From: Vandiemenella viatica
Taxonomy: Eukaryota; Arthropoda; Insecta; Orthoptera; Morabidae
Reading direction: 5' to 3'
Length of the DNA stretch: 64,000 nucleotides
Assembly: GCA_031002005.1 (NCBI GenBank)
Contig: CM061919.1
Coordinates: 16,191,687 to 16,255,686, forward strand
Shown piece by piece: positions 1,373 to 42,469 of this stretch (position 1 is its first letter; the number at the start of each line of letters is the position of its first letter). A program made the position numbers and the translations under genes. A model generated the notes under the pieces. That model was not told the DNA's origin, did no database searches, and saw nothing but the letters and a program-made list of their open reading frames with translations.

Positions 1373-1375
1373 ACA

Positions 1376-6421: not shown

Positions 6422-6785
6422 TGTCGTTTTGGAACCGGGGCAGGTGTGAATTCGAAGGTTACTTGTCAATGAACACAGCACTTAAACTGAGAACAGGTTT
6501 ATTGAGAACTCAAACATACACGCAGCACTGACTGCCTCTTGGGCAGAATGCTCTTCTATTTATACACAGATAGAACGTACTAGAGATTACAAGAGTAGTT
6601 AACAAGTGAGATGTGTAGAAGTTACAAGTGACCTTAGGAAACATGTAGAATCTTCTGGAAATAATAAACAGAATTAAATAATTTTTGTCAGTGGGCGGGA
6701 TTGAACCGGCGACCCTCGGTACCGCAATTCGTGACGCTACCCGCTGCGCCATGCTGGCAGACGGTACACTGGCGTTCATGCGGCA
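6422..6785 (-). repeat. 3' LTR of inner Ty3/gypsy element
   Basis: This 364-bp LTR reads TGCCGCATGAACG... to ...CCAAAACGACA on the minus strand. It is near-identical to 9828-10191. It holds a tRNA-like A-box/B-box segment close to its 5' edge and the sequence CTATTTATACAC (plus strand) in its middle. Confidence 0.92.
6690..6760 (-). promoter_or_regulatory. tRNA-like RNA polymerase III promoter inside LTR
   Basis: On the minus strand TGGCGCAGCGGG (6740-6751) matches the A-box consensus TRGCNNAGYNGG completely. GGTTCAATCC (6698-6707) matches the B box GGTTCGANTCC at all but one specified base. The spacing of about 33 bp is that of a tRNA gene. The same block occurs at 10096-10166 in the other LTR. 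It may be a captured tRNA/SINE head or a genuine second promoter. Confidence 0.6.
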
Positions 6786-6820
6786 TTGCTCCCTCTCCTG
6801 AGGAAAACAGCGTCCCGCTG

Positions 6821-8438: not shown

Positions 8439-8491
8439 CCATGGAGGATTTTCATCTGCGGCGGCCTCACCTCCGTAGATGGTCGCCTTGC

Positions 8492-9673
8492 TTAGTTTTC
8501 CTGCGTGCGGCGGCTAGGGGAGCGGCTGGTAGCTCTGTCCGGCGACGATGAACGGCAGCGGCGCGTCGGGGATCGACCTCGTCTAGGGTACGGCGATGGG
8601 CTTCTTCCCGTAGGTCGACCGAACTCGTCAGCGGGTGGCTGCCTGGGGTAGAACTGTTCTGATGGCGGACGTCTTGCGGCAAAATAATCGTCAAATACTC
8701 GTCTTCTCTCTCTGCAGTAGCGTGCGACATGTCCAGGGCGCCCACAGTGGAAACATACTGGCGCGTTGTCTTCTGTCCTCCAGACGTCCGTTCGTCTGCG
8801 GGACGTCATAGGTGCCGGAGGATTTGGTTGTGGCCGTGTCGGCCGGTTCCTAGGCTGCCGTTTGGCAGCTGCAGCATACGTCATATCAGGGCGAGGCCAT
8901 TCTTCACGTCGAGTGCGATTGGCTCGGCAGACAGGAGCTATTGTCTGAAATACCTCTTTTTCCGCCGCGTCGGCTCCTTCATGACCCACTGGGCTTACAT
9001 CCATGGCCATGATCTGATGCTCACTCGGTTCAAGAGTCCCAGCTGCCATGAACTGTTGTAATTCTTCTCTCACAATTTGTCGTATGAGAGACGCAAAGTC
9101 GTGCTGGTCTTCCACAACTGCCATAGGGACTACGTTGGGAAGTCTGTCATACTTCTTTCGCCCAACCCTCCTTTGTTGCATCTCCTCAATCCGCTGGCAC
9201 CACTTGATGAACTCTTCCGTCGTAGCGACGTCTTTTATCAAAAGAGCTTGGTACATGTCTTCTGCAATACCTTTCATTAGGTGCGTGATTTTGTCGGCTT
9301 CAGTCATATTCGGGTTGACTACGTTGCATAGGGCCAAAACATCCTGTACGTAAGATTGCGTCGGCTCCCCATGTCGTTGGGCCCGGTTCTTCAGTTGTTC
9401 TTCCGCCGAGCGGATTTGTCGCTGGTGGTCCCCAAACGTTTTCTTAAGTTCCGTCTGGAACATTTCCCAGTTATTCAGTTTCTCTTCGTTGTTCTCGAAC
9501 CACTGCTGGGCGGTTCCGTCCAGATAGAAATAAACATTTGCCAAGCACATGGTATGATCCCACCTGTTGTACTTGGCGACTCGGTCGAACCCTTTTAGCC
9601 ATTTGTTAGGATCCTGTCCAGCGTCTCCAGAGAACACCGATGGGTGTCGAATGTGCAGCTGGCTTGCCGCCAT
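8492..9673 (-). CDS. gag polyprotein of inner Ty3/gypsy element
   Basis: About 393 residues when started at the first in-frame ATG after the primer-binding site (9673); the frame is open further upstream into the primer-binding site. The N-terminal half is a retrotransposon gag capsid domain (WLKGFDRVAKYNRW, AQQWFENNE, GDHQRQIRS). A proline/arginine-rich linker follows, then one CCHC zinc knuckle (CFHCGRPGHVARYC) and an Arg/Ser-rich tail that would bind RNA. The frame is intact, so it could still supply particles. Protease lies in a different frame just downstream. Confidence 0.88.
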   Translation of the reverse strand: MAASQLHIRHPSVFSGDAGQDPNKWLKGFDRVAKYNRWDHTMCLANVYFYLDGTAQQWFENNEEKLNNWEMFQTELKKTFGDHQRQIRSAEEQLKNRAQRHGEPTQSYVQDVLALCNVVNPNMTEADKITHLMKGIAEDMYQALLIKDVATTEEFIKWCQRIEEMQQRRVGRKKYDRLPNVVPMAVVEDQHDFASLIRQIVREELQQFMAAGTLEPSEHQIMAMDVSPVGHEGADAAEKEVFQTIAPVCRANRTRREEWPRPDMTYAAAAKRQPRNRPTRPQPNPPAPMTSRRRTDVWRTEDNAPVCFHCGRPGHVARYCRERRRVFDDYFAARRPPSEQFYPRQPPADEFGRPTGRSPSPYPRRGRSPTRRCRSSSPDRATSRSPSRRTQEN

Positions 9674-9805
9674 GGGTTTCCTAATGACGCGGACTTTCGG
9701 AAGGACGTACTGAGTATATCCTTTGTAGTCCGGTTCCAGTCCGTGTAGGCGGCGACTTTTACGTTGCCTAATCGGAGCCACGACGATGCAGCTGTTGCAC
9801 AGGGT

Positions 9806-9823
9806 ACCCGGCGTCTCCACCAA
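9806..9823 (-). other. Primer-binding site, inner element
   Basis: Five bases after the 5' LTR (minus strand) is TGGTGGAGACGCCGGG. Its complement, CCCGGCGTCTCCACCA, looks like the 3' end of a tRNA (T-stem side, acceptor stem and CCA). I do not assign the isoacceptor. Confidence 0.6.
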
Positions 9824-9827
9824 ACTA

Positions 9828-10191
9828 TGTCGCGTTGGAACCGGGGCAGGTGTGAATTCGAAGGTTACTTGTCAATGAACACAGCACTTAAACTGAGAAC
9901 AGGTTTATTGAGAACTCAAACATACACGCAGCACTGACTGCCTTTTGGGCAGAATGCTCTTCTATTTATACACAGATAGAACGTACTAGAGATTACAAGA
10001 GTAGTTAACAAGTGAGATGTGTAGAAGTTACAAGTGACCTTAGGAAACATGTAGAATCTTCTGGAAATAATAAACAGAATTAAATAATTTTTGTCAGTAG
10101 GCGGGATTGAACCGGCGACCCTCGGTACCGCAATTCGTGACGCTACCCGCTGCGCCATGCTGGCAGACGGTACACTGGCGTTCATGCGGCA
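9828..10191 (-). repeat. 5' LTR of inner Ty3/gypsy element
   Basis: Partner of 6422-6785, about 1% different by eye. It carries the same tRNA-like segment at 10096-10166. Confidence 0.92.
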
Positions 10192-12909: not shown

Positions 12910-13879
12910 TGTAATGAATTAAAAGGTACAGTGCCATTGGGCACTAAGTGATCCCACGGTGTGTGTGAATTTTGCCGATGCGTCGTGTCAACGAACAGAA
13001 ACGTGACGGAACTAAAGCGTCCAGATTTACACGCACCTTGGGGGGTGCTGACAACGTCCTACTCAACGTGGACATAAAGCGGATTTATAACCCCCATAAA
13101 TAACTGAGACCCGCTTTCTATTTTCGCACGTTTCGGAAAGTTCCCGCCGAAAACTGACGCAGACTAGCAAAAATAAACCTTAGTGACGTTTCCTAGTAAA
13201 TGAGTGCTTTATGAGAGTAGGGGAAGACGATCCAGCCAATAGAGAAGCCGCCTCAATTTATTGCCGTGTTGGTGTTTTTTCTTGTCAGTTCTGGGGCCAA
13301 TGTGGCGCTGGTCCTTTGGCGCGGATTGCGGTGATTCGCCAAGAGCCGGACCCGACATCGCATTACGACAAGTACGGAGTCTTGCTCGGAGGAGAGGAAC
13401 GGACGACGAGACACTCTGGTGCAGATCTTCATGTAGTACGGCCGAAGTGACCTTCGCTGAGTACGAGTCGGCAGCTGGGGACGCTGCCATCACGATGGGC
13501 CGGTCGAGGAAGCTGCACGACCCCATGTGGCGCGGGTCTTGCCTGGTCGCTGACCTGGGCTGTGAATAATGGTAAAAGCTACGACCCGGACGGAAACTCA
13601 TGCAATCGTTCCACCCAGTAATGACCCTGAGATTTTGCTCTAGCTGTTTGATATTCAATGATATGTAATTGTTAACCTCAGAATAAAAACAAACTTCATG
13701 TTTGACTAATTTCACAATAATAAATTGTACACCCAATTTTCAGTTTTCCTATTCATTACAATAATATTTCATGTGTTAAGCTGAAGATTAAGTATGACTT
13801 TTGATATTCCAAATTGATAATTTTGTTAATGATAAAACAGTGTGACCCAAATATAAACGTCCGCAAGGGAGACGTTACA
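12910..13879 (+). repeat. 3' LTR of outer element
   Basis: 970-bp partner of 403-1372 starting TGTAATG and ending GACGTTACA, followed by the duplicated AACC. Confidence 0.92.
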
Positions 13880-13883
13880 AACC

Positions 13884-15345: not shown

Positions 15346-15875
15346 GTAATCATTAGAGTCCTTGCATGTTCGCATTAACAAATCAAAGCTTTGCCAGACG
15401 AGAAAATCAATTTTAAGGCCTGTAAACATTGCATCCTAGACCCGGTGACCTCCCATATCCGAATCACACGCCGCAAGCATCTGAATCTAGAAGTACTGAA
15501 AAATATGTATTCAATCATACAATATTTGTTTTTTGGGATAGCAAAAATAAATTATATAGAATAAAAGTAAGTTTATTTTATTATGTTTTAATATTAATTT
15601 TTGATTACATCCAGATTTGTCTCTTGGCTCAGATGGTTACGGCGTACGATTGGGGAACTGAAAGTCCCTGGTTCAAATCCCTGCCTCACCTATAATTTTT
15701 CCGGCTCTTAAAATTGACATTCACGTCTGTCAAAGCTTTGATTTGTTAATGCTAAGATGCTAGGACGCTTCATGGTTCGAATTTCACGTTAATCTGTAGT
15801 TTTCCTTTTCAAATTAGGTGACAACGATAAAGGTATACTGCGCCGCTGATAACTCTGTGATTGGAATTTATAGAG
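15346..15875 (-). mobile_element. Left part of Harbinger-like element D, split by the palindrome
   Basis: Reverse-oriented copy of the interior of elements 29273-30696 and 31768-33246, with the same order: SINE-like inverted dimer, then GGTGACAACGATAAAG and AACTCTGTGATTGG. It ends at ATAGAG (15870-15875), where the giant palindrome enters, and resumes at 28691. Its left end is truncated against LINE debris near 15346. Confidence 0.85.
15372..15752. repeat. Inverted tRNA-like dimer R, copy 1
   Basis: A 381-bp unit framed by GCATTAACAAATCAAAGC and its inverse. Near the right end (plus strand) is a tRNA-like block: TGGCTCAGATGG as A box and GGTTCAAATCC as B box, about 30 bp apart. The left half carries an inverted, more decayed counterpart. 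The other copies are 29987-30373 and 32508-32887. Confidence 0.75.
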
Positions 15876-15919
15876 AGTAGTGTTATATTGTCTTAGCTAG
15901 CCAGAAACCGGGAAAACCC

Positions 15920-16130
15920 GTGACGTCACAAGATGGCCGCCCGTTAGTTCTTTGGCCGGCCAAGATGGCGGGGACCGTTAGTTCTTTGGCCGGCCAAGAT
16001 GGCGGGCCGTTAGTTCTTTGACCGGCCGCACAGATGGCAGCATCTCCTGGGGGCGCTGGACCGTTAGTTCACCGACCCGCTGGTAGATGGCAGACACCGT
16101 TAGTTCTTTGGGCGACTGGTAGATGGCGTG
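15920..16130 (+). repeat. Subterminal array with AAGATGGCGG motifs, left
   Basis: Five copies of CCGTTAGTT or CGTTAGTT alternate with GGCCGGCC and ATGGC-containing segments. Repeated units of about 35 bp carry AAGATGGCGG, the core bound by YY1/Pleiohomeotic-type zinc-finger proteins. Whether such proteins bind here is inference. The mirrored array is at about 28425-28630. Confidence 0.8.
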
Positions 16131-16559
16131 GCATGCATCATTTTGGTCTGGGGCGTGTTTACACATGATACGCGCTCTGTTAGACGTTGCGACAGGTGTG
16201 AACTTGCTCATCCGAGACATCGCGCGTTCGCCTTGCATCACTGTCACCAGATGGCAGCACCTAGAGTTGCTATAGTCACCGCTAGATGGCCTGGCATGCT
16301 TCATATGCGTGAAATATTTCGGAATCCCCGTTTTCGGGCCTGCGTGAACACGCTCTGTTTGCTCTCAATTATGCATTGCGAAATGTGTGCCGCGCGGGTA
16401 TTCCTAGCGTCCTGTTAAGCAAGCACTGAACATCTTGGCTACTATCGACACACAGTAAAATATTTTCTTCAGTTCTGTGTCGTGAAAAATACTTAAGCGT
16501 GAACCATTGCGATTTTTTTACTAAAAAAAATAAAGTCCACATCAACGGATATTACGTGA

Positions 16560-16740
16560 ACAGACATCGGCAGTGTTGGGGCTAGAGTGCCGAAGGTCGC
16601 CGGTTCGAGTCCGGCCGCGGTGTTTAAGTGTTTTGTGAAAAAGCCGTTCCAACTCGTCAATTTCCACTGCCTAGAGAGTATGGCGCCAGCTTGACTTGTT
16701 ATAATTGAATAAAAAAATAATTTGATAAGCATACATTCTT
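16560..16740 (+). repeat. tRNA-like SINE scrap in left arm
   Basis: GGTTCGAGTCC is a perfect B box, preceded by GAAGGTCGCC. An A box is not clear upstream (TGGGGCTAGAG is the best stretch). The AT-rich 3' part suggests a decayed SINE. The mirror copy is near 27830-28010. The GGTCGCCGGTTC context matches the tRNA-like block in the inner LTR. Confidence 0.4.
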
Positions 16741-16971
16741 CCTTTTAACGTTCGATATGGAAAAAAAAACAGTCATAAACTCCAGATATAAAACCGAGTA
16801 AGAATTCTATGTGTACCTGTTTTCATGAAATTATTTAGCGTTCTGGCCTTGCATTCGGGAGGACACCGGTTCCGAGCATCCAGATTTGGGTTTTCCATGG
16901 TTTCCCAAATCACTCCAGGCAAATGCCGGGATGCTTCCTTTAAAAGACCATGGCCGAATTCCTTCCCATTC

Positions 16972-17393
16972 CTTTCCCGTCTCTAAAGACCTCGCTGTTA
17001 ACATAAATTCCGTTCATCGAAGCAGGCAGACATTAAAAATTAATTCACCGACGAAGAGACTGGAAACAAATTCACTTTTTCACATCATGATGGATTCATT
17101 ATGAACAATATAATATAACTCACGAGTGTCACCTACAGTCCGTGTATTTTAAAGGATGTATTAAATTAGGGGTACCTTGCCCCCCCCCCCATCCTTTCCC
17201 GTCTCTAAAGACCTCGCTGTTAACATAAATTCCGTTCATCGAAGCAGGCAGACATTAAAAATTAATTCACCGACGAAGAGACTGGAAACAAATTCACTTT
17301 TTCACATCATGATGGATTCATTATGAACAATATATAACTCACGAGTGTCACCTACAGTCCGTGTATTTTAAAGGATGTATTAAATTAGGGGTA
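16972..17393. repeat. Tandem duplication of about 215 bp in left arm
   Basis: CCTTTCCCGTCTCTAAAG through ATTAAATTAGGGGTA occurs twice in a row, joined at a C tract (about 17180-17189). The mirror in the right arm lies at about 27170-27592, with a G tract. Confidence 0.88.
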
Positions 17394-17921
17394 ATGAAAC
17401 ACAGACACTTTTTGAACTCAAAGAGGCATTGAAGTGGGTTTACTGATGTATGTAAGTATGACCTCGATGAATTGAGAGCCGCTAAAATAAAGCAAAGTTG
17501 TCGATTTGAAAACCAGTTTCTTTCGCTACAGACATTTCTGAAGTGAATACATGATGTCAAACCAATCAGCCTGTAATTTTTTCAAGCTTATTTCTCAACC
17601 CTGCAGACTCAGTCTTTCGACAAGAGCCCCACATGAAAATACTTGTGACAGTCGATTTGAAAACCAGTTTCTTTCCCTACAGACATTCCAGAAGTGAATA
17701 CACGTTAATCTCTCCACTTATATCAAACCAATCAGCATGTAATTTTTTTTCAAGCCTATTTCTCAACCCTGTCTTTGGACAAGAGGCCACTTGAAAATAT
17801 TTGTGACAAAGCCTTTCCCACATCAAAGCTAGAAAAAATCAAAGTTTCCAGTATGACCATGGCAAAGCTCATGAAATGCAGTGAGGGAAGATAGAATTCA
17901 TATTAGCATCAGTACGACGCC

Positions 17922-18374
17922 TTATTTATCTAACTTATATCTGCTGCCATTGGTATAAAATATTTCATTGCACTCGTAATTGTTGCCACCAAGGTCAAAC
18001 CTTTGTCGTCTGTCAATCCAGACCAATCTATGTATCAATTCTGTTATGCTTTCGTAAGCAATCACAAATTGAGTGTCCTTAGCTGCACTTTGTCTAAAAT
18101 TCCAATAAATCCCTTGTGATACATCAATGATTGACACCTTTAACTGTATTTTACAGCTCAGCACGTATGTTCCAGGAACGAGACACCGTCTGTTAATCTT
18201 ACTAATTTCACCCCTGTCGAATCGAAGTACGCCAGTCCTATGTGATAAAAATCGAGTCACGCTAAGCACAGAACATGCCTGAGACCATCGCCTGTGACCA
18301 AGGTGGAGATATAGAAAATTTACCCACTTCCTTATAGAAGAAATCCAGTGCACTATTCCTAATTCTTTCACCAA
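17922..18374 (-). CDS. Unrecognised 150-residue open frame (mirror at 26186-26638 +)
   Basis: I do not recognise this frame. It lies in both palindrome arms with the same residues, so arm conservation alone keeps it open. It is Arg/Lys- and aromatic-rich with no signal peptide or membrane segment. A chance frame within old LINE-like sequence is as likely as a gene. Confidence 0.2.
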   Translation of the reverse strand: MVKELGIVHWISSIRKWVNFLYLHLGHRRWSQACSVLSVTRFLSHRTGVLRFDRGEISKINRRCLVPGTYVLSCKIQLKVSIIDVSQGIYWNFRQSAAKDTQFVIAYESITELIHRLVWIDRRQRFDLGGNNYECNEIFYTNGSRYKLDK

Positions 18375-19009
18375 GATCCACCCCTAGCCTCATCGCCAAC
18401 ATACGCCCAGCACTTCGTCAAACCACCTTCTGTTTTCCAATGATTCCCATTCAAACCCCTGATCAGTTACAGACAGGGTTACCTTCTGTTCGTGCGTTAA
18501 AGTAAACCAAAAATTCAAAATTCGCAAAGTCTTCTCCTAATCAGTAGCCAGGTACCAAAATGTTCACTTAAGGTGCTTCTACTGCAGTTTTCCAGGAAAT
18601 TATTTTTCAATAAATCAGGACCCAGGAGAGTTCTCCATTCGGTTTAAAATGTTCCCATCTAACGCCAACCTTCGGATTCAGGGCCAAGTGTGACATTTGT
18701 TTGTAATTGCATGCTTCGTTCAAGTAACCACGATAAAGTTACCATAATGCTCTTAGCTAACTGATAGTTTCTTGGTCATCAAACAGACATCATAACCCAC
18801 ATTTTCATAGAAGATCCCCACACATCGACAAGTATCCATAGGTGCAGACACTAGTTCTATTACGCCTAAGATAGTGCTCACACCTGAACTGTCGTAAATT
18901 GTTAGGTCAAAGTGGGTGTTTAGATATTTTATCCACTCAGGCCTCATCACCTAAAGTCTAGTGCGAGATTGTGGTCATGGTCAACTTAGGCTCCATACAC
19001 CACTCAGAA

Positions 19010-19210
19010 TTATTCCACCAATATCCATTCTAACAGCATTATACGCCACCTACAGCCCCTCAACAATCTTCCTATCTTCCAATGACATACCAGCTCCAGC
19101 TCCTTTATTATGTCACTTACTGAATATTTTCCACAGATAAATCTAGCTGCATTCCTTTGCACCTTGCATTTGATGTACAAAAAATGTGGACTCCATACTA
19201 CACCACACAA
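19010..19210 (-). pseudogene. LINE RT tail scrap in left arm
   Basis: Contains VWSPHFLYIKCKVQRNAARFICG and DIIKELEL, the post-core segment (VW.PH...VQRRAARFV.G) of the LINE also found in element C at 33560-34880. Stops and frameshifts surround it. Confidence 0.6.
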
Positions 19211-19419
19211 GTCCTTCGCTTCTCTGGTACATCACCCCTCTCTGTTAAATGATTTTTATGTAGTGAGAATCACAATTCGTATGCCAATACAAACGGTAGT
19301 AAACTGTAAAGAGCACATCGAAATGGGAGATTGCCTAAGCCCTGAAACAATGGTTAGAAGCACACGTTGATGGTGAGCATAATTCTATAACCATATATTT
19401 TAGACTCAAATCCACATAG

Positions 19420-22020
19420 GAATGACACACGCACACACTTGTACATGCATACAGCGAGGTCGACAGAACTAACAGCAAGCATCACGGAAACGATGAAGTG
19501 GGGGGCAGAATTGTCGTTACAACTGATTAACTGGACAGAACTATCGTTACAAAAATCATCAGACAGACGAGTTACTTACGCTTACATGCACAAAGAGAGA
19601 CGCAGATACACATGTCCAAGACTACACAACTACCGGTACCAATCATGGAAACAAAAAAGTGGTGTAGTACTCTCTTGCCTCATGACTGGCTGAAAAACAG
19701 AAGTCTCCTTACATATCATCAGCCTGGCGAGATAGAAGATGTGCAAAAGATGACATGTTTTCACCATAAACCTAAGTGTTTATACCATAAATAGTGTTCA
19801 TCGCGCCCCAGTTGATTATATTTACCATCAACACGTCTCTCCCACACCGCAACCCTTTCTACCATTCAGTAAAAAAGTGACGCAGGTACCATGAGTTGCA
19901 ATAGACACTTGGCTATCAGATCTCACCCACAAATCCATACATCTCAATACACTAGCACAAACAAACATAAGTGGAGGGGACAGCAAAATCATTCGTCCAG
20001 ACAGACGTGTTTATAGAAGGTATCACCATATTTACACATACAGACACAGAGAGAGACGCACAAACACTCACATTTCCATGCCTTCAGCGAGCTAGACACA
20101 ACAACCAGCCCCAATCATGGCGACGAAAAAGTGGGGTAGAACCCCCATGGCTCATAACTGACCAAAAAATCATCAGTAACATATGTTCCAGGCACCATAC
20201 TCTTCACATCAACATCATCTCATTTATTTCACACTACAGACCTCACTACCATCCAGTATCATGTGTGCTAGGTACAAAACTGTTCACATCAGCACCAACA
20301 CGTCTATCCCACACCTAAGCTTTTTCTGCCATTCAGTAACATGTGCTCCCCATGTACCACGAGTAGCAGTAGACACTTGGTCATCAGACAGATATCATAA
20401 CTCCCATATTCATACTAGGTCTCACCCACAAATCCATATGTCACCTCACACAAGCATCAGTGCAGGAACAGCACATCATACATCCAGACAAACGAGATAA
20501 AGGAAGGTATCACCACATTTACGCAAAAAAAAAAACACACACAGAGATAGAGACGCATACACACGTACATTTCCATGCCTACAGCGATCTCGACTCAACA
20601 ACTAGCCCAATCGTGGCAACGAAAAAGTGGTACAGAACACCCATGACTGGCCAAAAATCATAGAAAGACACACATACACACACACACATGTCAATGCATT
20701 CACACAGTTCCATTCATCACCACACATAACTGGAGGAAAGAGACTGAACATGCTAGATCCAACTAAAGAGTTACAGGATGTGTGAAGTTTGAAATCACAG
20801 CCACATCTCTCCCACACCGCAACCCTTTCTGTCATTTAGTAACATGTGACCCAGGTACCATGAGTTACAATGGACACTTGTCTATCAGACGGATATCATA
20901 ACCTCCATATTCATACTAGGTCTCACCCACAAACCCATACGTCTCCACACAAGCACAAACATATGGGAGGAACAGCAATTCATACGTCCAGATAAATGAG
21001 TTTAAGGAAGGTATCACCATACTTACGCATACAGACACAGAGAAAGACGCACACAGACACATATATCCATGCCTACAGCGAGCTCAACACAACAACCAGC
21101 CCAATCATGGCAAAGAAAAAGTGGGACAGAACCCCCATGGCTCAAGACTGACAAAAAAAAATCATCATTAACATGTGTTCCAAGTAACAAACTCCTCACA
21201 TCAAAATCATATCATTTAACTTACACTACAGACCTCTCTGCCATTCAGTATCGTTGGTAATATGTACAAAGCTGTTCACATGATCAGCACCACCTCTATC
21301 CCACGCCACAAGCCTTTTCTGCTGTTCAGTAATATTTGTCCGACGTACCACGAGTATCAGTAGGCACATGGTCATCAGACAAATATCATAACTCCCATAC
21401 TCATACTAGGTCTCACACACAAACATAACTGACCAAAAAACCATCAGACAGACGTTAGAGTGTGTGCAATGGATGACATGTTTTTGCCATACACCTCAGT
21501 ACTTATCACATTATCAATTAATTACATCAACACATAGGTAGCCAGTCATTGTGAAATCTCAAAGTCGAGTAGAATCCTATCGGGATAGACACACAACCAC
21601 ATAGAAAGACACACACTCACATGTCCATGCATACACACAGTTACCATACATCACCACACACATACACGTAACTGGAGGAAAAGGACTGAACACCCTAGGT
21701 CCAGACTGAATAGCTACAGGATGTGCGAAATATTTCATTTCTTTGCCACAAACCTCGGTGCTCATCATACCCAAATGATTACATCTACATAGGTGGCCAC
21801 TGATGGAAAAATCTCAAGTAGACTCCTACCACCATAATTACACACATAACCACACAGGAACACGTACACACACATATGTCCATGCATATACCACAATTTC
21901 ATAAGTTACCACATACATACAAGTAACTGCAGGAAAGGGACCCGACACACGACGTCCACACTAAGGTGTTACATGATAGGCAGATGATAGCATGTCTTTA
22001 CAATACACCTCAGTGCTCAC
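19420..22020. repeat. Array of diverged units of about 495 bp, left arm
   Basis: Landmarks such as CATGCCTACAGCGAGCT, AGAAAAAGTGGG and GGTCTCACCCACAAA recur about every 490-500 bp (for example near 20045, 20536 and 21036). Units have diverged by substitutions and AC-rich slippage. There is no coding pattern; the short frames here are by-products of the repeats. Confidence 0.75.
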
Positions 22021-22191
22021 CACACATACTTGATTTTTAATGTGCCATCAGTATAGCTGGTGGCTGGAACTAAGCTCTTGGCAATGTTTGGCCAAAAGTC
22101 ATTTGTTAATAGCAGCTCATCAAAGACAAATTTTGGGTGAACCTGCCCAGGCGGGCGCGGCGAGAGGTGGCCACCCTTCCCCACTGCGGAC

Positions 22192-22369
22192 AGAAATACC
22201 GTAATACGCCGGTCTAAAAGCGCGGACCGCGATGGATTACCGGAGTTTTCCGACCGGGACCTACTACCGGTAACCGCATTTTTAGGACCGCACTGAAGAC
22301 CGGAATTTCATTGCGCTCGAGGCGGTAATATGCGCCGGTATACCGACCTACTAAAACACGATGTACGCG
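22192..22369. other. GC-rich spacer at palindrome centre
   Basis: About 178 bp without an inverted partner. It is crowded with ACCG/CGGT tetranucleotides (ACCGGTAACCGC, CGGTATACCG and others) and has a different base composition from the AT-rich arms. No frame or known motif. Confidence 0.8.
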
Positions 22370-22544
22370 TCCGCTGTGAGGAAGGGTGGCCACCTCTCGC
22401 CGCGCCCGCCTGGGCAGGTTCACCCAAAATTTGTCTTTGATGAGCTGCTATTAACAAATGACTTTTGGCCAAACATTGCCAAGAGCTTAGTTCCAGCCAC
22501 CAGCTATACTGATGGCACATTAAAAATCAAGTATGTGTGGTGAG

Positions 22545-25130
22545 CACTGAGGTGTATTGTAAAGACATGCTATCATCTGCCTATCATGTAACACCTTAGT
22601 GTGGACGTCGTGTGTCGGGTCCCTTTCCTGCAGTTACTTGTATGTATGTGGTAACTTATGAAATTGTGGTATATGCATGGACATATGTGTGTGTACGTGT
22701 TCCTGTGTGGTTATGTGTGTAATTATGGTGGTAGGAGTCTACTTGAGATTTTTCCATCAGTGGCCACCTATGTAGATGTAATCATTTGGGTATGATGAGC
22801 ACCGAGGTTTGTGGCAAAGAAATGAAATATTTCGCACATCCTGTAGCTATTCAGTCTGGACCTAGGGTGTTCAGTCCTTTTCCTCCAGTTACGTGTATGT
22901 GTGTGGTGATGTATGGTAACTGTGTGTATGCATGGACATGTGAGTGTGTGTCTTTCTATGTGGTTGTGTGTCTATCCCGATAGGATTCTACTCGACTTTG
23001 AGATTTCACAATGACTGGCTACCTATGTGTTGATGTAATTAATTGATAATGTGATAAGTACTGAGGTGTATGGCAAAAACATGTCATCCATTGCACACAC
23101 TCTAACGTCTGTCTGATGGTTTTTTGGTCAGTTATGTTTGTGTGTGAGACCTAGTATGAGTATGGGAGTTATGATATTTGTCTGATGACCATGTGCCTAC
23201 TGATACTCGTGGTACGTCGGACAAATATTACTGAACAGCAGAAAAGGCTTGTGGCGTGGGATAGAGGTGGTGCTGATCATGTGAACAGCTTTGTACATAT
23301 TACCAACGATACTGAATGGCAGAGAGGTCTGTAGTGTAAGTTAAATGATATGATTTTGATGTGAGGAGTTTGTTACTTGGAACACATGTTAATGATGATT
23401 TTTTTTTGTCAGTCTTGAGCCATGGGGGTTCTGTCCCACTTTTTCTTTGCCATGATTGGGCTGGTTGTTGTGTTGAGCTCGCTGTAGGCATGGATATATG
23501 TGTCTGTGTGCGTCTTTCTCTGTGTCTGTATGCGTAAGTATGGTGATACCTTCCTTAAACTCATTTATCTGGACGTATGAATTGCTGTTCCTCCCATATG
23601 TTTGTGCTTGTGTGGAGACGTATGGGTTTGTGGGTGAGACCTAGTATGAATATGGAGGTTATGATATCCGTCTGATAGACAAGTGTCCTATTGTAACTCA
23701 TGGTACCTGGGTCACATGTTACTAAATGACAGAAAGGGTTGCGGTGTGGGAGAGATGTGGCTGTGATTTCAAACTTCACACATCCTGTAACTCTTCAGTT
23801 GGATCTAGCATGTTCAGTCTCTTTCCTCCAGTTATGTGTGGTGATGAATGGAACTGTGTGAATGCATTGACATGTGTGTGTGTGTATGTGTGTCTTTCTA
23901 TGATTTTTGGCCAGTCATGGGTGTTCTGTACCACTTTTTCGTTGCCACGATTGGGCTAGTTGTTGAGTCGAGATCGCTGTAGGCATGGAAATGTACGTGT
24001 GTATGCGTCTCTATCTCTGTGTGTTTTTTTTTTTTGCGTAAATGTGGTGATACCTTCCTTTATCTCGTTTGTCTGGATGTATGATGTGCTGTTCCTGCAC
24101 TTATGCTTGTGTGAGGTGACATATGGATTTGTGGGTGAGACCTAGTATGAATATGGGAGTTATGATATCTGTCTGATGACCAAGTGTCTACTGCTACTCG
24201 TGGTACATGGGGAGCACATGTTACTGAATGGCAGAAAAAGCTTAGGTGTGGGATAGACGTGTTGGTGCTGATGTGAACAGTTTTGTACCTAGCACACATG
24301 ATACTGGATGGTAGTGAGGTCTGTAGTGTGAAATAAATGAGATGATGTTGATGTGAAGAGTATGGTGCCTGGAACATATGTTACTGATGATTTTTTGGTC
24401 AGTTATGAGCCATGGGGGTTCTACCCCACTTTTTCGTCGCCATGATTGGGGCTGGTTGTTGTGTCTAGCTCGCTGAAGGCATGGAAATGTGAGTGTTTGT
24501 GCGTCTCTCTCTGTGTCTGTATGTGTAAATATGGTGATACCTTCTATAAACACGTCTGTCTGGACGAATGATTTTGCTGTCCCCTCCACTTATGTTTGTT
24601 TGTGCTAGTGTATTGAGATGTATGGATTTGTGGGTGAGATCTGATAGCCAAGTGTCTATTGCAACTCATGGTACCTGCGTCACTTTTTTACTGAATGGTA
24701 GAAAGGGTTGCGGTGTGGGAGAGACGTGTTGATGGTAAATATAATCAACTGGGGCGCGATGAACACTATTTATGGTATAAACACTTAGGTTTATGGTGAA
24801 AACATGTCATCTTTTGCACATCTTCTATCTCGCCAGGCTGATGATATGTAAGGAGACTTCTGTTTTTCAGCCAGTCATGAGGCAAGAGAGTACTACACCA
24901 CTTTTTTGTTTCCATGATTGGTACCGGTAGTTGTGTAGTCTTGGACATGTGTATCTGCGTCTCTCTTTGTGCATGTAAGCGTAAGTAACTCGTCTGTCTG
25001 ATGATTTTTGTAACGATAGTTCTGTCCAGTTAATCAGTTGTAACGACAATTCTGCCCCCCACTTCATCGTTTCCGTGATGCTTGCTGTTAGTTCTGTCAA
25101 CCTCGCTGTATGCATGTACAAGTGTGTGCG
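22545..25130. repeat. Array of diverged units of about 495 bp, right arm
   Basis: Mirror of 19420-22020, GT-rich on the plus strand. Confidence 0.75.
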
Positions 25131-25349
25131 GGTGTCATTCCTTTGTGGATTTGAGTCTAAAATATATGGTTATAGAATTATGCTCACCATCAACGTGTGC
25201 TTCTAACCATTGTTTCAGGGCTTAGGCAATCTCCCATTTCGATGTGCTCTTTACAGTTTACTACCGTTTGTATTGGCATACGAATTGTGATTCTCACTAC
25301 ATAAAAATCATTTAACAGAGAGGGGTGATGTACCAGAGAAGCGAAGGAC

Positions 25350-25550
25350 TTGTGTGGTGTAGTATGGAGTCCACATTTTTTGTACATCAAATGCAAGGTG
25401 CAAAGGAATGCAGCTAGATTTATCTGTGGAAAATATTCAGTAAGTGACATAATAAAGGAGCTGGAGCTGGTATGTCATTGGAAGATAGGAAGATTGTTGA
25501 GGGGCTGTAGGTGGCGTATAATGCTGTTAGAATGGATATTGGTGGAATAA
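25350..25550 (+). pseudogene. LINE RT tail scrap in right arm
   Basis: Mirror of 19010-19210 with the same residues. Confidence 0.6.
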
Positions 25551-28424
25551 TTCTGAGTGGTGTATGGAGCCTAAGTTGACCATGACCACAATCTCGCACT
25601 AGACTTTAGGTGATGAGGCCTGAGTGGATAAAATATCTAAACACCCACTTTGACCTAACAATTTACGACAGTTCAGGTGTGAGCACTATCTTAGGCGTAA
25701 TAGAACTAGTGTCTGCACCTATGGATACTTGTCGATGTGTGGGGATCTTCTATGAAAATGTGGGTTATGATGTCTGTTTGATGACCAAGAAACTATCAGT
25801 TAGCTAAGAGCATTATGGTAACTTTATCGTGGTTACTTGAACGAAGCATGCAATTACAAACAAATGTCACACTTGGCCCTGAATCCGAAGGTTGGCGTTA
25901 GATGGGAACATTTTAAACCGAATGGAGAACTCTCCTGGGTCCTGATTTATTGAAAAATAATTTCCTGGAAAACTGCAGTAGAAGCACCTTAAGTGAACAT
26001 TTTGGTACCTGGCTACTGATTAGGAGAAGACTTTGCGAATTTTGAATTTTTGGTTTACTTTAACGCACGAACAGAAGGTAACCCTGTCTGTAACTGATCA
26101 GGGGTTTGAATGGGAATCATTGGAAAACAGAAGGTGGTTTGACGAAGTGCTGGGCGTATGTTGGCGATGAGGCTAGGGGTGGATCTTGGTGAAAGAATTA
26201 GGAATAGTGCACTGGATTTCTTCTATAAGGAAGTGGGTAAATTTTCTATATCTCCACCTTGGTCACAGGCGATGGTCTCAGGCATGTTCTGTGCTTAGCG
26301 TGACTCGATTTTTATCACATAGGACTGGCGTACTTCGATTCGACAGGGGTGAAATTAGTAAGATTAACAGACGGTGTCTCGTTCCTGGAACATACGTGCT
26401 GAGCTGTAAAATACAGTTAAAGGTGTCAATCATTGATGTATCACAAGGGATTTATTGGAATTTTAGACAAAGTGCAGCTAAGGACACTCAATTTGTGATT
26501 GCTTACGAAAGCATAACAGAATTGATACATAGATTGGTCTGGATTGACAGACGACAAAGGTTTGACCTTGGTGGCAACAATTACGAGTGCAATGAAATAT
26601 TTTATACCAATGGCAGCAGATATAAGTTAGATAAATAAGGCGTCGTACTGATGCTAATATGAATTCTATCTTCCCTCACTGCATTTCATGAGCTTTGCCA
26701 TGGTCATACTGGAAACTGATTTTTTCTAGCTTTGATGTGGGAAAGGCTTTGTCACAAATATTTTCAAGTGGCCTCTTGTCCAAAGACAGGGTTGAGAAAT
26801 AGGCTTGAAAAAAAATTACATGCTGATTGGTTTGATATAAGTGGAGAGATTAACGTGTATTCACTTCTGGAATGTCTGTAGGGAAAGAAACTGGTTTTCA
26901 AATCGACTGTCACAAGTATTTTCATGTGGGGCTCTTGTCGAAAGACTGAGTCTGCAGGGTTGAGAAATAAGCTTGAAAAAATTACAGGCTGATTGGTTTG
27001 ACATCATGTATTCACTTCAGAAATGTCTGTAGCGAAAGAAACTGGTTTTCAAATCGACAACTTTGCTTTATTTTAGCGGCTCTCAATTCATCGAGGTCAT
27101 ACTTACATACATCAGTAAACCCATTCAATGCCTCTTTGAGTTCAAAAAGTGTCTGTGTTTCATTACCCCTAATTTAATACATCCTTTAAAATACACGGAC
27201 TGTAGGTGACACTCGTGAGTTATATTGTTCATAATGAATCCATCATGATGTGAAAAAGTGAATTTGTTTCCAGTCTCTTCGTCGGTGAATTAATTTTTAA
27301 TGTCTGCCTGCTTCGATGAACGGAATTTATGTTAACAGCGAGGTCTTTAGAGACGGGAAAGGATGGGGGGGGGGGCAAGGTACCCCTAATTTAATACATC
27401 CTTTAAAATACACGGACTGTAGGTGACACTCGTGAGTTATATTATATTGTTCATAATGAATCCATCATGATGTGAAAAAGTGAATTTGTTTCCAGTCTCT
27501 TCGTCGGTGAATTAATTTTTAATGTCTGCCTGCTTCGATGAACGGAATTTATGTTAACAGCGAGGTCTTTAGAGACGGGAAAGGAATGGGAAGGAATTCG
27601 GCCATGGTCTTTTAAAGGAAGCATCCCGGCATTTGCCTGGAGTGATTTGGGAAACCATGGAAAACCCAAATCTGGATGCTCGGAACCGGTGTCCTCCCGA
27701 ATGCAAGGCCAGAACGCTAAATAATTTCATGAAAACAGGTACACATAGAATTCTTACTCGGTTTTATATCTGGAGTTTATGACTGTTTTTTTCCATATCG
27801 AACGTTAAAAGGAAGAATGTATGCTTTTCAAATTATTTTTTTATTCAATTATAACAAGTCAAGCTGGCGCCATACTCTCTAGGCGTGGAAATTGACGAGT
27901 TGGAACGGCTTTTTCACAAAACACTTAAACACCGCGGCCGGACTCGAACCGGCGACCTTCGGCACTCTAGCCCCAACACTGCCGATGTCTGTTCACGTAA
28001 TATCCGTTGATGTGGACTTTATTTTTTTTAGTAAAAAAATCGCAATGGTTCACGCTTAAGTATTTTTCACGACACAGAACCTGAAGAAAATATTTTACTG
28101 TGTGTCGATAGTAGCCAAGATGTTCAGTGCTTGCTTAACAGGACGCTAGGAATACCCGCGCGGCACACATTTCGCAATGCATAATTGAGAGCAAACAGAG
28201 CGTGTTCACGCAGGCCCGAAAACTGGGATTCCGAAATATTTCACGCATATGAAGCATGCCAGGCCATCTAGCGGTGACTATAGCAACTCTAGGTGCTGCC
28301 ATCTGGTGACAGTGATGCAAGGCGAACGCGCGATGTCTCGGATGAGCAAGTTCACACCTGTCGCAACGTCTAATGGATAGTAAACAGAGCGCGTATCATG
28401 TGTAAACACGCCCCAGACCAAAAT

Positions 28425-28630
28425 GATGCATGCCACGCCATCTACCAGTCGCCCAAAGAACTAACGGTGTCTGCCATCTACCAGCGGGTCGGTGAACTAA
28501 CGGTCCAGCGCCCCCAGGAGATGCTGCCATCTGTGCGGCCGGTCAAAGAACTAACGGCCCGCCATCTTGGCCGGCCAAAGAACTAACGGTCCCCGCCATC
28601 TTGGCCGGTCCAATGAATCTAACGGGCGGC
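28425..28630 (-). repeat. Subterminal array, right
   Basis: Mirror of the left array with CCGCCATCTTGG and AACTAACGG repeats. It differs slightly in the outermost unit (CCAATGAATCTAACGG). Confidence 0.8.
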
Positions 28631-28696
28631 CATCTTGTGACATCACGGGTTTTCCCGGTTTCTGGCTAGCTAAGACAATATAACACTACTATAGAG

Positions 28697-29265
28697 CACA
28701 CGAAATTATTATTTTACAGAATCTTTGCGGTCTGCATTTAAATAGAAATGTATAATAATCATATTCTTTTTTGTTATAAATAATATTGAGTGATTCGAAA
28801 GTAACCTCAACCAAAATAAACATGTTAAATGTGAATTGAGAGACGCTTGACATTTCATTGTGACTATGTAGAGATACACGAGAATCTTTCAATCCAGTAC
28901 AGTGTGACGACCATTTGTTAAAACTACTTTGGAATACTATTTTTGTCCATAAGAGTTCAAACAATTGGGAGATAACAGGCAAATTTTTTTATTTTAACCT
29001 ACTTTATTATTTAGTAGATTATAAAGTACAATACTCTATAATAAAGTACCGATGGTAGCCGCAGCTCCGATCCCCAAATCACTTTTTAGGTAATTTTTTA
29101 ACATTAATTCCGTGAAACAGCCAAGTGTATGCGTTAAAGGAGACTGAAGACTGAGTAGGAACCCGTCCGTCACACGGCGGTGCTACGGACCAGTGTGGAC
29201 GCGAGGGGGCGAGCCTATACTCGGCCGAGTGTCGGTGCGGTGGCGGCTCGGCCTCGGAGCAGTAC
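28697..29265 (-). mobile_element. Right part of Harbinger-like element D
   Basis: Continues element D after the palindrome (GAAATTATTATTTTACAG...CTTTGCGGTCTGC). It is the inverse of 29335-29865 in element A and reaches the CCACACTGG/CGGCCGAGTG subterminal zone. Its own terminal repeat is eroded near 29260. It lies head-to-head with element A, giving an inverted pair of about 520-bp arms. Confidence 0.8.
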
Positions 29266-29272
29266 CGGATTA

Positions 29273-30696
29273 AGGTCGGGCCACACTAGACCGCACCGCA
29301 CCTAACCCGCAACGCACCATCACTCGGCCGTGTGTCGGCTCGCTCCCCTCGCGTCCACACTGGTTCGTAGCACGGCCGTGTGACGGACGGGTTCCTACTC
29401 AGTCTTCAGTCTCCTTTAACGCATACACTTGGCTGTTTCACGGAATTAATGTTAAAAAATTACCTTAAAAGGGATTTTGGTATCGTAGCTGCGGCTACCA
29501 CCCGTACTTTATTATAGAGTACTGTACTTTATAATCTACGAAGGTAATAAAGTACGTTAAAAAACTTTTTTGTGTGACTCCTGTTATCTCCTAATTGTTT
29601 GATCTCTTATGCACAAAAATAGTATTCCAAAATTGTTTTAACAAATGGTCGTCACACTGTATTGAAAGATTTTCGTGTAATTCTATATAGTCACGATTAA
29701 ATGTCTAGCGTCACTCACTTCACATTTAACGTGTTTGTTTTGGTTGAAGTTCCTTTTCGAGTCACTCAATATTTTTTTAACAAAAAAGAATAAGATTATT
29801 ATACATTTTTATTTTAGTGCAGACCGCAAAGATTCCGTAAAATAATAATAATTTCATGTGATCTAAAAATTCCAGTCACAGAGTTACTTATCGGCTGCGC
29901 AGTACACCTCTATCGTTGTCACCTAATTTGAAAAGGAAAACTGCAGATTAACGTGAAATTCGTAACACGGAGCGTCCTAGCATTTTATTAACAAATCAAA
30001 GCTTTTCCAGAGGTGAATGTCAATTTTACGATCCATAAAAATTACAGCTGAGACAGGGATTTGAACCATGGACTTTCATTTCCCCAATTGTACGCCGTAA
30101 CCTTCTGAGACAAGAGACAAATCTGGTTATAATCAAAAATTATTATTCAAACATAATAAAATAAACGTACTTATAATTTATTTTTGCCATGCCAAAACAC
30201 AAATGTACTTTATTATATGATTGAATACATATTTTCCATTACTTCTAGATTCAGATTCTTGTGGCGAGTGATTTGGGTACGGAAGGTCCCCGGTTCAAAA
30301 TCCGGATCTCGGATGCAATTTTTACAGTCCTTAAAATCGACTTTCACCACTGGCAAAGATTTGATTTGTTAATGCGAACATGCAAGGGCTCTAACTACAT
30401 TTTACGAATATCTGATGAACCTGAAGTGAGGCTGAAAAAAAAGACACACTTCTAAATCAATTAGTAACGTTTAAACAATATTTAGTCGTAAAGGACCGGC
30501 AACCAGCCCGACAGCAGACCGACACCGGGCCGCACAATCAAAATATAAACCAAATTTATTGGGGCCAACACACGGCCGTGTGTCGGCCGACACGCGGTGT
30601 CGTTTGAACTCACTTCAATCGAGTGAGCGACAACAATAAAAAAAAGTGACAGTGGGGTGCGCCCCCGTTGCGTTGCGGTCTAGTGCGGCCCGACCT
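29273..30696 (+). mobile_element. Harbinger-like non-autonomous element A
   Basis: 1,424 bp with terminal inverted repeats AGGTCGGGCCACACTAGACC and flanking TTA (29270-29272, 30697-30699). A TTA/TAA TSD is the PIF/Harbinger rule. No transposase. It carries R copy 2 and GC-rich subterminal repeats with CGGCCGTGTG. Confidence 0.83.
29987..30373. repeat. Inverted tRNA-like dimer R, copy 2
   Basis: Bounded by ATTAACAAATCAAAGC and its inverse. It holds GGGATTTGAACC on one side and GGTTCAAAATCC on the other, i.e. B-box-like sites facing opposite ways. Confidence 0.7.
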
Positions 30697-30729
30697 TTAA
30701 CCACGTAGCAGGAGGTAGCAAATGCTATG

Positions 30730-31609: not shown

Positions 31610-31767
31610 CTCATTTCTTTTTGTTAGTTTATCGCTTATTCTAAATCACCGCTCAGATGTAATCATTCCATTTGAAAATCGGCGAATAAGAACGTTTCAG
31701 AATTGAAGATATCAATATACATTACCAAAAATGCCCCACTTTCTGAAAACAAAGATTGTGCGCCTTA

Positions 31768-33246
31768 AGGTCGGGCCACACTAGACCGCACCGACACCGC
31801 GCCGCGTCTGAGCCAACACTCGGCCGTGTGTCGGCTCGCCCCAATCGCGTCCACACTGGTCCGTAACACGGCCGTGTGACGGACGGGTTCCTTCGCGGCC
31901 TGCAGTCTCCTTTAACGTATAAACTTATTTGTTTCACGAAATTAATCTTAAAAAATTACCTTAAGAGTGATTTGGGGATCATAGCTGCGGCTACCACCCG
32001 TACATTATTATAGAGTACTGTACTTAATGATCTACGAACGTAATAAAATATGTTAATTTTTTTTTGTTTTTCCCTGACTCCTGTTATAACCTCACTGTTT
32101 GATTTCTAATGCACAAAAATAGTATCCCAGAGCAGTTTTAAAAAATGTTCGTCACACTGTACTGAATTGGAAGATTTTCGTGTATCTCTACATAGTACAT
32201 ACAGTAGTCACAAAGAAATGTCAAGCGTCTCTCACTTCACATTTAACATTTTTATTTTGTCTGAGGCTACTTTCGATTCACTCAATACTTTTTTTTTACA
32301 AAAAAGAATATGATTATTATACATTTTAATTTAAATACAGAATGCAAAAATTGTGAAAAATAATAATAGTTTCATGTGATCTAAAAATTCAAGTCACAGA
32401 GTTTCTTATCGGCCGCCCAGTACACGTCAATTGTTCTCACTTAATTTGTAAAGGAGACCTACTGATTAACGAGAAATTCGAACAACGGAGCGTCCTAGCA
32501 TCTTAGCATTAACAAATCAAAGCTTTGCCAGAGGTCAGTTTTAAGACCCATAAAAATTACAGCTGAGACAGGGATTTGAACCAGGAAATTTCAGTTCCCC
32601 AATCGTACGCGGTAACGTCAGAAGACAAATCTGGATGTAATCAAAAATTATTATTCAAACATAATAAAATAAACGAACTTTTATTCTATATAATTTATTT
32701 TACCATCCCAAAACACAAATGTACTTTTATTTGATTGAATACATATTTTCCAGTACTTCTAGATTCAGATGCTTGTGGCGAATGATTTGAATACGGTAGG
32801 TCCCCTGTTCAAAATCCGAATCTCGGATGCAATTTTTACAGGGCTTAAAATCGACTTTCACCACTGGCAAAGATTTGATTTGTTAATGCGAACATGCAAG
32901 GGCTCTAACTACATTTTACGAATATCTGATGAACCTGATGTGAGGCTGAAAAAAAAGACACACTTCTCAATCAATCAGTCACGTTAAAACAATATTTAGT
33001 CGTTAAAAGGACCGGAAATTTCCGAACTCTTTCTATACAGTTCTCCATACCGACCAGCCCAACAGCCGACCAACACCGGGCCGCACCGTGAAAATATAAA
33101 CCAAATTTATCCGAGCCAACACACGGCCGTGTGTCGGCCGCCACGCGGTGTCGTTTGAACTCACTTCAATCGAGTGAGCGACAACAATAAGAAAAATGAC
33201 GGTGCGGTGCGGCCCGGGTGCGGTGCGGTCTAGTGTGGCCCGACCT
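31768..33246 (+). mobile_element. Harbinger-like non-autonomous element B
   Basis: Sister of element A, 1,479 bp, with the same terminal repeats and TTA on both sides (31765-31767, 33247-33249). It carries R copy 3 (32508-32887). Its right TTA is also the left TTA of element C. Confidence 0.85.
32508..32887. repeat. Inverted tRNA-like dimer R, copy 3
   Basis: Same position within element B as copy 2 within A, so R was already part of the family ancestor. Confidence 0.7.
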
Positions 33247-33559
33247 TTAGGGCCTTATTACACTAGGCGACTTGGCGGCGCAACCAGCCGGGCCACTGGT
33301 GGCTCTGCTCGTCACTGGGCACTGAGTCTTATGGAGCTTATTACACTAGGGCGGCCAGCTGGCTGCCCTACCCGGCGACCAGGCCGGCAACCACTGGTGG
33401 CCGAGAGTCGTGGCGGGGCATTGTATCTTACGAAGCTTATTACACTAGGCCACCAGGCGGCGCCGCCAGACACGCCACCACGCGTTCAGTCTACTGTTCA
33501 TACGCCCCCTTCCTACTTTACAATTTTAAAATTGCAGAGATACTGAGTGTCAGGTTTGG

Positions 33560-42460: not shown

Positions 42461-42469
42461 TTCGGAGTG

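What the first reader, a model, noticed from the sequence alone, without database searches (positions are those of the whole stretch)
15876..28690. A 12.8-kb near-perfect palindrome that behaves as one transposon
Arms of about 6.3 kb, mirrored at about 99%, end in exact inverse termini (AGTAGTGTT/AACACTACT) with ATAGAG duplicated at both sides. Beyond the duplications the left and right flanks join into one older Harbinger-like element (D), whose intact relatives A and B show what the empty site looked like. Fully palindromic elements of this size are not among the standard classes I know.
Basis: partly seen in the sequence, partly recalled or inferred. Interest (0 to 1): 0.92.

Follow-up and report, generated by a model that had tools for sequence, protein, structure and literature searches.

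The report
Giant mirror-image Polinton satellite transposon
This 12.8-kb stretch is a jumping DNA element made almost wholly of one sequence and its mirror image, carrying the ends and 6-base target duplication of the virus-like Polinton transposons; it is likely moved by their enzymes, and its two halves are probably kept alike by copying one from the other.

Summary
Window 15876-28690 is a palindrome: two ~6.32-kb arms that differ at 23 places, an asymmetric 177-nt centre, exact ends AGTAGTGTT/AACACTACT, and a 6-bp duplication ATAGAG. The joined flanks align through two older elements (85%, 81%), so this is one clean insertion. It is not an unknown class: ends and duplication are those of Maverick/Polinton elements. 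A 21.8-kb coding Polinton in the same genome shares 391 bp of terminal repeat at 97-98% with a relative that has the palindromic core. The palindrome shows no coding capacity, so it is best read as a non-autonomous satellite. It is a family: 40 of 40 scored centre matches are at least 99% identical (1,333 first-look candidates), and 20 of 20 centres fetched have mirrored flanks. Two-armed copies differ by up to ~9%, yet 6 of 10 copies carry more private variants in both arms than in one, and a 621-nt deletion has the same breakpoints in both arms of 5 of 20. Two markers beside the centre keep their side in 20 of 20. I infer one fold-back origin, spread as a palindrome, and arm-to-arm copying. 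Mobilisation in trans and timing are inferred.

The parts
15870..15875 (+). left target-site duplication ATAGAG
15876..22191 (+). left arm, 6,316 nt, starting AGTAGTGTT
15876..16149 (+). terminal 274 nt, 89% identical to the left end of the coding Polinton at C4537:381798274-381820029
   Evidence: L025, arm positions 1-274
15929..16027 (+). subterminal ~32-nt tandem repeats, mirrored at 28537-28637
16965..17393 (+). tandem duplication of ~222 nt inside the arm, mirrored at 27164-27590
19826..21423 (+). degenerate internal repeats of the arm (71-79% alike), mirrored in the right arm
22192..22368 (+). asymmetric 177-nt centre (loop) shared by other copies
22369..28690 (-). right arm, 6,322 nt, ending AACACTACT
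28415..28690 (-). mirror of the terminal Polinton-like stretch
   Evidence: place G000:C6:16219939-16220376
28691..28696 (+). right target-site duplication ATAGAG
15353..15869 (.). left part of the older interrupted element D (matches A and B reversed)
28697..29263 (.). right part of element D
29270..30699 (.). element A, uninterrupted relative used for the empty site
31765..33249 (.). element B, uninterrupted relative used for the empty site

Best explanation
The palindrome is one insertion with Maverick/Polinton-type ends and a 6-bp target duplication, a member of a family without evident genes that is likely copied and inserted in trans by the protein-primed polymerase and integrase of resident coding Polintons, and whose two arms are probably kept alike by arm-to-arm copying. 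The palindrome probably arose once, when the end of a Polinton derivative was copied back on itself (fold-back synthesis) and left the 177-nt loop; it then spread as a palindrome. When one strand is displaced during protein-primed replication it would snap back into a 6.3-kb hairpin, and repair of mismatches in that hairpin would make one arm follow the other. Shown: insertion, ends, duplications, shared loop, shared terminal repeat, concordant arms in most older copies tested. Inferred: helper in trans, fold-back origin, hairpin repair, and its timing before insertion.
For: C8a stands for the copy at C8:165657193-165670681 (L009/L010). Ends: in 11 end pairs read by hand from the 40 matches, the 6 bp beside the ends are duplicated exactly in 9 and with one mismatch in 2; slid controls reach one mismatch or fewer in 2 of 330. 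Vertebrate Mavericks most often end in (AGT)2//(ACT)2 and have 6-bp duplications (PMC8097293, section 7 and passages). Helper candidate: C4537:381798274-381820029, 21,756 bp, GCCGGC at both sides, with DNA_pol_B_2 (1e-24), rve integrase (2e-16), Pox_A32-like ATPase (4e-6), phospholipase A2 (4e-10) and double-jelly-roll capsid (4e-124); its left terminal stretch matches both ends of the copy at C8:190361846 over 391-392 columns at 97.4-97.7%. Common origin: the same loop in the window, C8a, L015, L017, L027, L028 and 20 of 20 sampled copies, with two arm-specific markers always on the same side. Concordant arms: in a tree of arm positions 1501-3000 the arms of 4 of 5 two-armed copies (C8a, L012, L016, L028) form a pair, and those of the fifth, the window, are identical there; holding one arm of each apart is rejected. 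Private alleles: 205 in both arms against 90 in one arm over 10 copies. Both arms of C8a share 18 indels of 8 nt or more. A 621-nt deletion relative to the window has the same breakpoints in both arms in 5 of 20 copies.
Against: Outside the terminal repeat the arms share nothing detected with the coding Polinton, so the source of the arm payload is unknown. In the young sample (12 copies and the window, both arms matched over 300 nt) non-major alleles are in one arm 60 times and in both 21 times, private ones 28 against 8, and arms of a copy differ nearly as much (0.92%) as copies do (1.16%): arm copying is not seen in most recent changes. By copy, 4 of 10 have more one-arm than two-arm private alleles: the window (7 against 2), L017 (33 against 19), L013 (6 against 1), L011 (1 against 0). 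In one search arms are closer to each other than to any other copy in only 9 of 20 bins for the window (7 ties), 7 of 14 for L017 and 3 of 14 for L028 (whose nearest is mostly its duplicate L027). One-arm indels are also many (L028 13 shared against 9 and 23; L021 12 against 10 and 13), partly from alignment in repeats. The loop-side markers have never been overwritten in the sample, which speaks against rebuilding the palindrome from one arm at every round. The two ends of L013 differ. No replication intermediate or transposition was observed; the genome-wide count of polymerase genes did not complete.
Confidence: 0.7

Rival explanations
1. Same Polinton-type palindrome, but the arms are kept alike after insertion by ordinary gene conversion between inverted repeats in the chromosome, as in other large palindromes; replication plays no part.
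For: Concordant arms do not by themselves date the copying. The markers 7 and 11 nt from the loop survive, as expected if conversion needs paired DNA away from the loop.
Against: Copies with many one-arm changes exist: L071 has 14 differences in 504 nt, with 11 private alleles in one arm, and L068 12 in 496 with 10; efficient conversion in place should remove them. Short terminal repeats of the deletion derivatives L011, L014, L015 and L020 also share their own tip variant at both ends, though L013 does not.
Confidence: 0.3
2. A Foldback/Galileo-like element: a cut-and-paste transposon of another superfamily whose inverted repeats grew until they filled the element.
For: Galileo has non-autonomous two-TIR copies and TIR growth by internal tandem repeats (PMC3573991, passages); the window arm also holds internal tandem repeats.
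Against: Galileo copies carry 7-bp duplications and TIRs up to about 1.26 kb; here 6 bp, with terminal repeats shared with a coding Polinton.
Confidence: 0.05
3. Assembly or read artefact: a one-armed element whose reads folded back, or arms made alike by consensus polishing.
For: One locus (C1:41359450, L041/L042) also mirrors at least 420 nt of flank beyond the presumed tip, as a fold-back read would. Polishing could erase small differences between arms.
Against: The window's flanks differ, carry a duplication and rebuild an older element. Other loci with different flanks and duplications have the structure, and some have asymmetric deletions. Polishing would hardly copy a 621-nt deletion into the other arm.
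Confidence: 0.05
4. Many independent fold-back events, each making a palindrome from a different one-armed element at the same hot spot.
For: It would explain why both arms of a copy share private variants.
Against: The loop and its arm-specific markers are the same in 20 of 20 sampled copies (these were chosen as best matches to the window centre) and the loop is shared by older copies. A fresh fold-back would erase mismatches beside the loop.
Confidence: 0.1

Closest known systems
Maverick/Polinton elements (polintoviruses)
   Same: 6-bp target duplication, AGT-repeat ends, terminal repeat shared with a coding member in the same genome
   Different: no evident genes; arms of 6.3 kb make up nearly the whole element, against terminal repeats of 46-1,447 bp in intact vertebrate Mavericks (PMC8097293)
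Galileo two-TIR elements and Drosophila Foldback
   Same: non-autonomous, built of two long inverted repeats with internal tandem repeats
   Different: Galileo belongs to the P-element superfamily, with 7-bp duplications and TIRs up to about 1.26 kb (PMC3573991 passages)
AAV snapback subgenomes
   Same: defective genomes in a folded-back form arising beside a full virus (PMC8235507, abstract)
   Different: a parvovirus that replicates by rolling hairpin (abstracts listed), particles in culture; here a chromosomal family, replication inferred
Hairpin plasmid of Kikuchi 1985 (reference and one sentence seen in PMC4443254; paper not held)
   Same: palindromic derivative of a protein-primed yeast linear plasmid (recalled)
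   Different: cytoplasmic plasmid, not an integrated family (recalled)

Membership tests
Maverick/Polinton | 6-bp target-site duplication | tested here: met
   window exact; 9 of 11 end pairs exact, 2 of 11 one mismatch
Maverick/Polinton | ends (AGT)2//(ACT)2 or similar short repeats | tested here: met
   window AGTAGT/ACTACT; in other copies AGTAG with a varying sixth base, L021 left AATAG and L012 right AGTAC; motif
Maverick/Polinton | terminal repeat shared with a coding Polinton of the same genome | tested here: met
   89% over 274 nt for the window; 97.4-97.7% over 391-392 columns for copy L017/L019
Maverick/Polinton | encodes protein-primed polymerase and integrase | tested here: not met
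   only one frame of 150 aa or more in the arm (153 aa), no Pfam match, intact in 5 of 24 rows; hence a non-autonomous relative, not a Polinton proper
Maverick/Polinton | terminal repeats of ordinary length | tested here: not met
   6.3 kb here against 46-1,447 bp in intact vertebrate Mavericks
Maverick/Polinton | moved by Polinton integrase, copied by protein-primed polymerase | not testable with these tools
   inferred from ends only
Galileo/Foldback | 7-bp target-site duplication | tested here: not met
   6 bp match, a seventh does not (sequence; 7 bp)
Galileo/Foldback | P-superfamily transposase in a relative | not tested
   no search made
PIF/Harbinger | 3-bp target-site duplication | tested here: not met
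   6 bp at this palindrome; 3 bp stated in the abstract start listed (PMC2213677)

The most novel reading that the evidence does not exclude
A class of virus-like satellite: a Polinton parasite whose genome is one giant hairpin, which replicates by snapping back on itself, so that its two 6-kb arms proof-read each other when it moves. It has spread to dozens of loci at least, perhaps over a thousand, with no gene of its own.
Probability: 0.35. Interest if true: 0.85.

Novelty: new variant of a known kind. Interest (0 to 1): 0.64.

Why it matters
Polintons are thought to copy themselves by protein-primed synthesis, a view that to my knowledge rests mostly on their genes. A natural family whose body is entirely palindromic makes this testable: displaced strands should be hairpins, and the arms record which one was copied. 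It also suggests that a virus-like transposon can be parasitised by a gene-free, mirror-image derivative, and it puts up to 12.8 kb of inverted repeat at a locus of a 3.7-Gb genome.

Tried and rejected
Coding arm: the 153-aa frame (17922-18383 and mirror) has no Pfam match, no likeness to the coding Polinton's polymerase, and is intact in 5 of 24 rows only (window, L012, L011), so it was dropped. Payload from the resident coding Polinton: no match outside the terminal repeat in the stretches compared (L025, L029). Structure of the centre: 22180-22380 folds better than most shuffles (z -2.8, 3 of 200 as good), but the stretch holds 12 nt of each arm, so this was not used. Rebuilding of the palindrome from one arm at each round: at first favoured, then dropped because two loop-side markers persist in 20 of 20 copies. 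Copy number: only first-look candidates (2,749 for the tip; 1,333 for the centre) and 40 scored per search are available. The Pfam polymerase count was asked repeatedly and never answered. Of 10 centres whose presumed ends were fetched at a fixed distance, 4 showed matching left and right arms there: L039/L040 with ends and a duplication with one mismatch; L041/L042 with mirrored flank; L043/L044 beside a run of N; L045/L046 with the left end outside the stretch. The other 6 showed no pairing there, so their ends lie elsewhere or are lost; this was not followed. Rows dropped before counts: L027 (same flank as L028); rows over 12% from all other copies; L027, L021, L017 and L014. Eight of 20 copies were left out of the allele count because an arm stretch over 300 nt did not match; seven of these eight carry the 621-nt deletion in at least one arm. 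In one search the L017 bins at arm positions 3901-4500 compare different internal repeats. The control for L012 used a first, wrong right boundary, mended by eye. In print: of the papers listed, none shows a palindromic Polinton in title or abstract start; those are listings only, parts of longer hit lists, and the library lacks most subscription journals. Searches looked for hairpin plasmids and adenovirus parallels (one search found none).
Full report
What is there. The window lies in an unnamed 3.72-Gb genome (G000, contig C6). Positions 15876-28690 form a palindrome of 12,815 nt. The arms, 15876-22191 and 22369-28690, show 23 differences in the list (14 substitutions and 10 indels by my count; one row holds two substitutions). 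Between them lie 177 nt that are not palindromic. The element starts AGTAGTGTT, ends AACACTACT, and is flanked by ATAGAG on both sides. When the flanks are joined, they run in one alignment through reversed elements A (85%) and B (81%), which read TTAGAT at the junction. So the insertion is clean and duplicated 6 bp of its target.

It is a family. The first 425 nt match 40 scored places in the genome (2,749 first-look candidates). By hand I paired 22 of these 40 matches into 11 left/right pairs of 2.6-22 kb. In 9 of the 11 pairs the 6 bp beside the ends are identical, and in 2 (L016, L017/L019) they differ at one base (with L012 settled). Comparing stretches at 30 slid positions per pair gave one mismatch or fewer in 2 of 330 cases. 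A second long palindrome, C8:165657193-165670681 (called C8a), has duplication ACTGAG and lacks about 98 nt at the inner end of one arm. Several other copies read as palindromes that have lost unequal parts around the centre (L012, L015, L016, L020). Some places are duplicates of one insertion: L027 and L028 share their flank, as do L014, L023 and L024.

It is a Polinton relative. Six-bp duplications and (AGT)2//(ACT)2 ends are typical of vertebrate Mavericks (PMC8097293, passages and section 7). In this genome a 21,756-bp element, C4537:381798274-381820029, has the same kind of tip at both sides, with 173 nt of inverted repeat at 97.7%, and duplication GCCGGC. Its frames match DNA_pol_B_2 and rve integrase, a Pox_A32-like ATPase, phospholipase A2 and the double-jelly-roll capsid; of the 10 frames scanned, 5 matched no family and one only a family below its cut-off. 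Its left terminal stretch is 97.4-97.7% identical over 391-392 columns to both ends of the copy at C8:190361846-190384058 and 89% identical over 274 nt to the window's left end. The copy at C8:190361846 holds the palindromic core with the loop, but is 22 kb long, less regular outside the core and interrupted by a run of N. The arms share nothing else detected with the coding element, and the one frame of 150 aa or more in the arm is intact in 5 of 24 rows. The palindrome is therefore taken as non-autonomous. That Polinton enzymes move it is inferred from the ends.

One origin of the palindrome. The 177-nt centre is present at the same place in the window, C8a, L015, L017, L027 and L028. A search with 297 nt around it gave 1,333 first-look candidates; all 40 that were scored match at 99% or more over at least 295 of 297 nt. 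Of 20 of these 40 fetched with 600 nt on each side, 18 have inverted arms over 483 nt or more; L062 has 215 nt and L069 two shorter pieces. Two sites, 7 and 11 nt outside the loop, differ between the arms, and each keeps its side in 20 of 20 copies; these copies were chosen as best matches to the window centre, so this sample leans towards such agreement. Among the older copies the inner marker is kept in L015, L017 and L028, while the outer one is kept in L028 and alike on both sides in L015 and L017.

The arms of a copy change together, with exceptions. In a tree of arm positions 1501-3000, 15 rows, the arms of C8a, L012, L016 and L028 each form a pair (support 93-100), and those of the window are identical and sit in an open fork with L011 and L012. 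A tree that holds one arm of each of these five copies in one clade is rejected (log-likelihood 687 lower, p 5e-32; only one way of labelling the arms was tested). Two-armed copies lie up to about 9% apart in this tree, arms of a copy under 1%. Over 10 copies, alleles seen in no other copy are in both arms 205 times and in one arm 90 times. Six of the 10 have more in both (C8a 93 against 10, L028 26 against 11, L012 21 against 11, L021 18 against 1, L020 14 against 7, L016 11 against 3), four have more in one (L017 19 against 33, window 2 against 7, L013 1 against 6, L011 0 against 1). By 300-nt bins, arms are closer to each other than to any other copy in 16 of 19 bins for C8a, 7 of 9 for L012, 5 of 6 for L016, 3 of 3 for L021, but 9 of 20 for the window (7 ties), 7 of 14 for L017 and 3 of 14 for L028. 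Relative to the window arm, both arms of C8a share 18 indels of 8 nt or more, with 6 left-only and 9 right-only, 14 of these 15 in the tandem-repeat stretch where alignment is unsure; the other four copies share 5 to 13 with 9 to 32 one-arm ones. A 621-nt deletion (arm position 5398 joined to 6020) has the same breakpoints in both arms of L054, L056, L060, L066 and L067, is found in one arm by the same test in L064 and L069, and in neither arm of the other 13 of 20. The simplest reading is that one arm was copied into the other.

When does the copying happen? Against frequent copying in the chromosome, some copies carry many one-arm changes: L071 14 differences in 504 nt, L068 12 in 496. In that sample non-major alleles are in one arm 60 times and in both 21 times, and arms of a copy differ on average by 0.92% against 1.16% between copies. 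I read this as copying mostly before insertion, then slow divergence; it can also be read as copying being rare. The surviving loop-side markers speak against rebuilding the palindrome from one arm each round. Repair of mismatches in a snapped-back hairpin, with the last bases at the loop left alone, fits both facts. This is inference.

Mechanism. A Polinton derivative probably folded back once and was copied into a mirror dimer. Since then it has likely been replicated and inserted by Polinton proteins supplied in trans. Comparable folded-back derivatives are known as AAV snapback subgenomes (PMC8235507, abstract) and, from recall, as a hairpin plasmid from a yeast linear plasmid (reference seen in PMC4443254; the paper itself is not held). 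Galileo two-TIR elements resemble it in shape but have 7-bp duplications and TIRs up to about 1.26 kb (PMC3573991, passages).

Verdict. The class is not unknown: it is a new, extreme form of non-autonomous Polinton. What would surprise a specialist is a gene-free, fully mirrored Polinton satellite, with its centre at 40 or more places, whose arms tend to change together.

Noticed in passing
L041 and L042 (C1:41352600-41353400, C1:41365500-41366300): At this copy the mirror symmetry runs at least 420 nt past the presumed end AGTAGATATAATACC into the flank: a fold-back in the assembly or a real mirrored flank.
   Followed up: partly
L025:475-9901, L029, L051:1-2329 (C4537:381798274-381820029): A 21.8-kb Polinton with polymerase, integrase, ATPase, phospholipase and capsid frames and an exact 6-bp duplication GCCGGC.
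   Followed up: partly
L026 (C5:7254300-7264200): Another Polinton-like left end, with a 1,000-base gap of N and gypsy-type frames further in.
   Followed up: no
window 6422-10191: Two 364-nt direct repeats 98.9% alike with retroelement-like frames between them: looks like an LTR retrotransposon (by eye).
   Followed up: no
window 405-1373 and 12912-13880: 969-nt direct repeat, 98.5% identical, 12.5 kb apart, enclosing the LTR-like element.
   Followed up: no
window 44018-44662: 214-aa frame that looks like a mariner transposase by eye.
   Followed up: no
window 38001-44000: Strong G-over-C strand bias (skew 0.30-0.43) over 6 kb.
   Followed up: no
window 29011-29208 and 29345-29542: 198-nt inverted repeat, 94%, where the right end of element D meets element A.
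   Followed up: no
contigs C7, C8, C4537, C7729 of G000: Four contigs with nearly equal lengths (388,957,591-388,957,675), which looks like a cut made in the record rather than chromosome ends.
   Followed up: no
L014, L023, L024; L027 and L028: The same insertion flanks appear at several places, so larger duplications or unmerged haplotypes are present.
   Followed up: no
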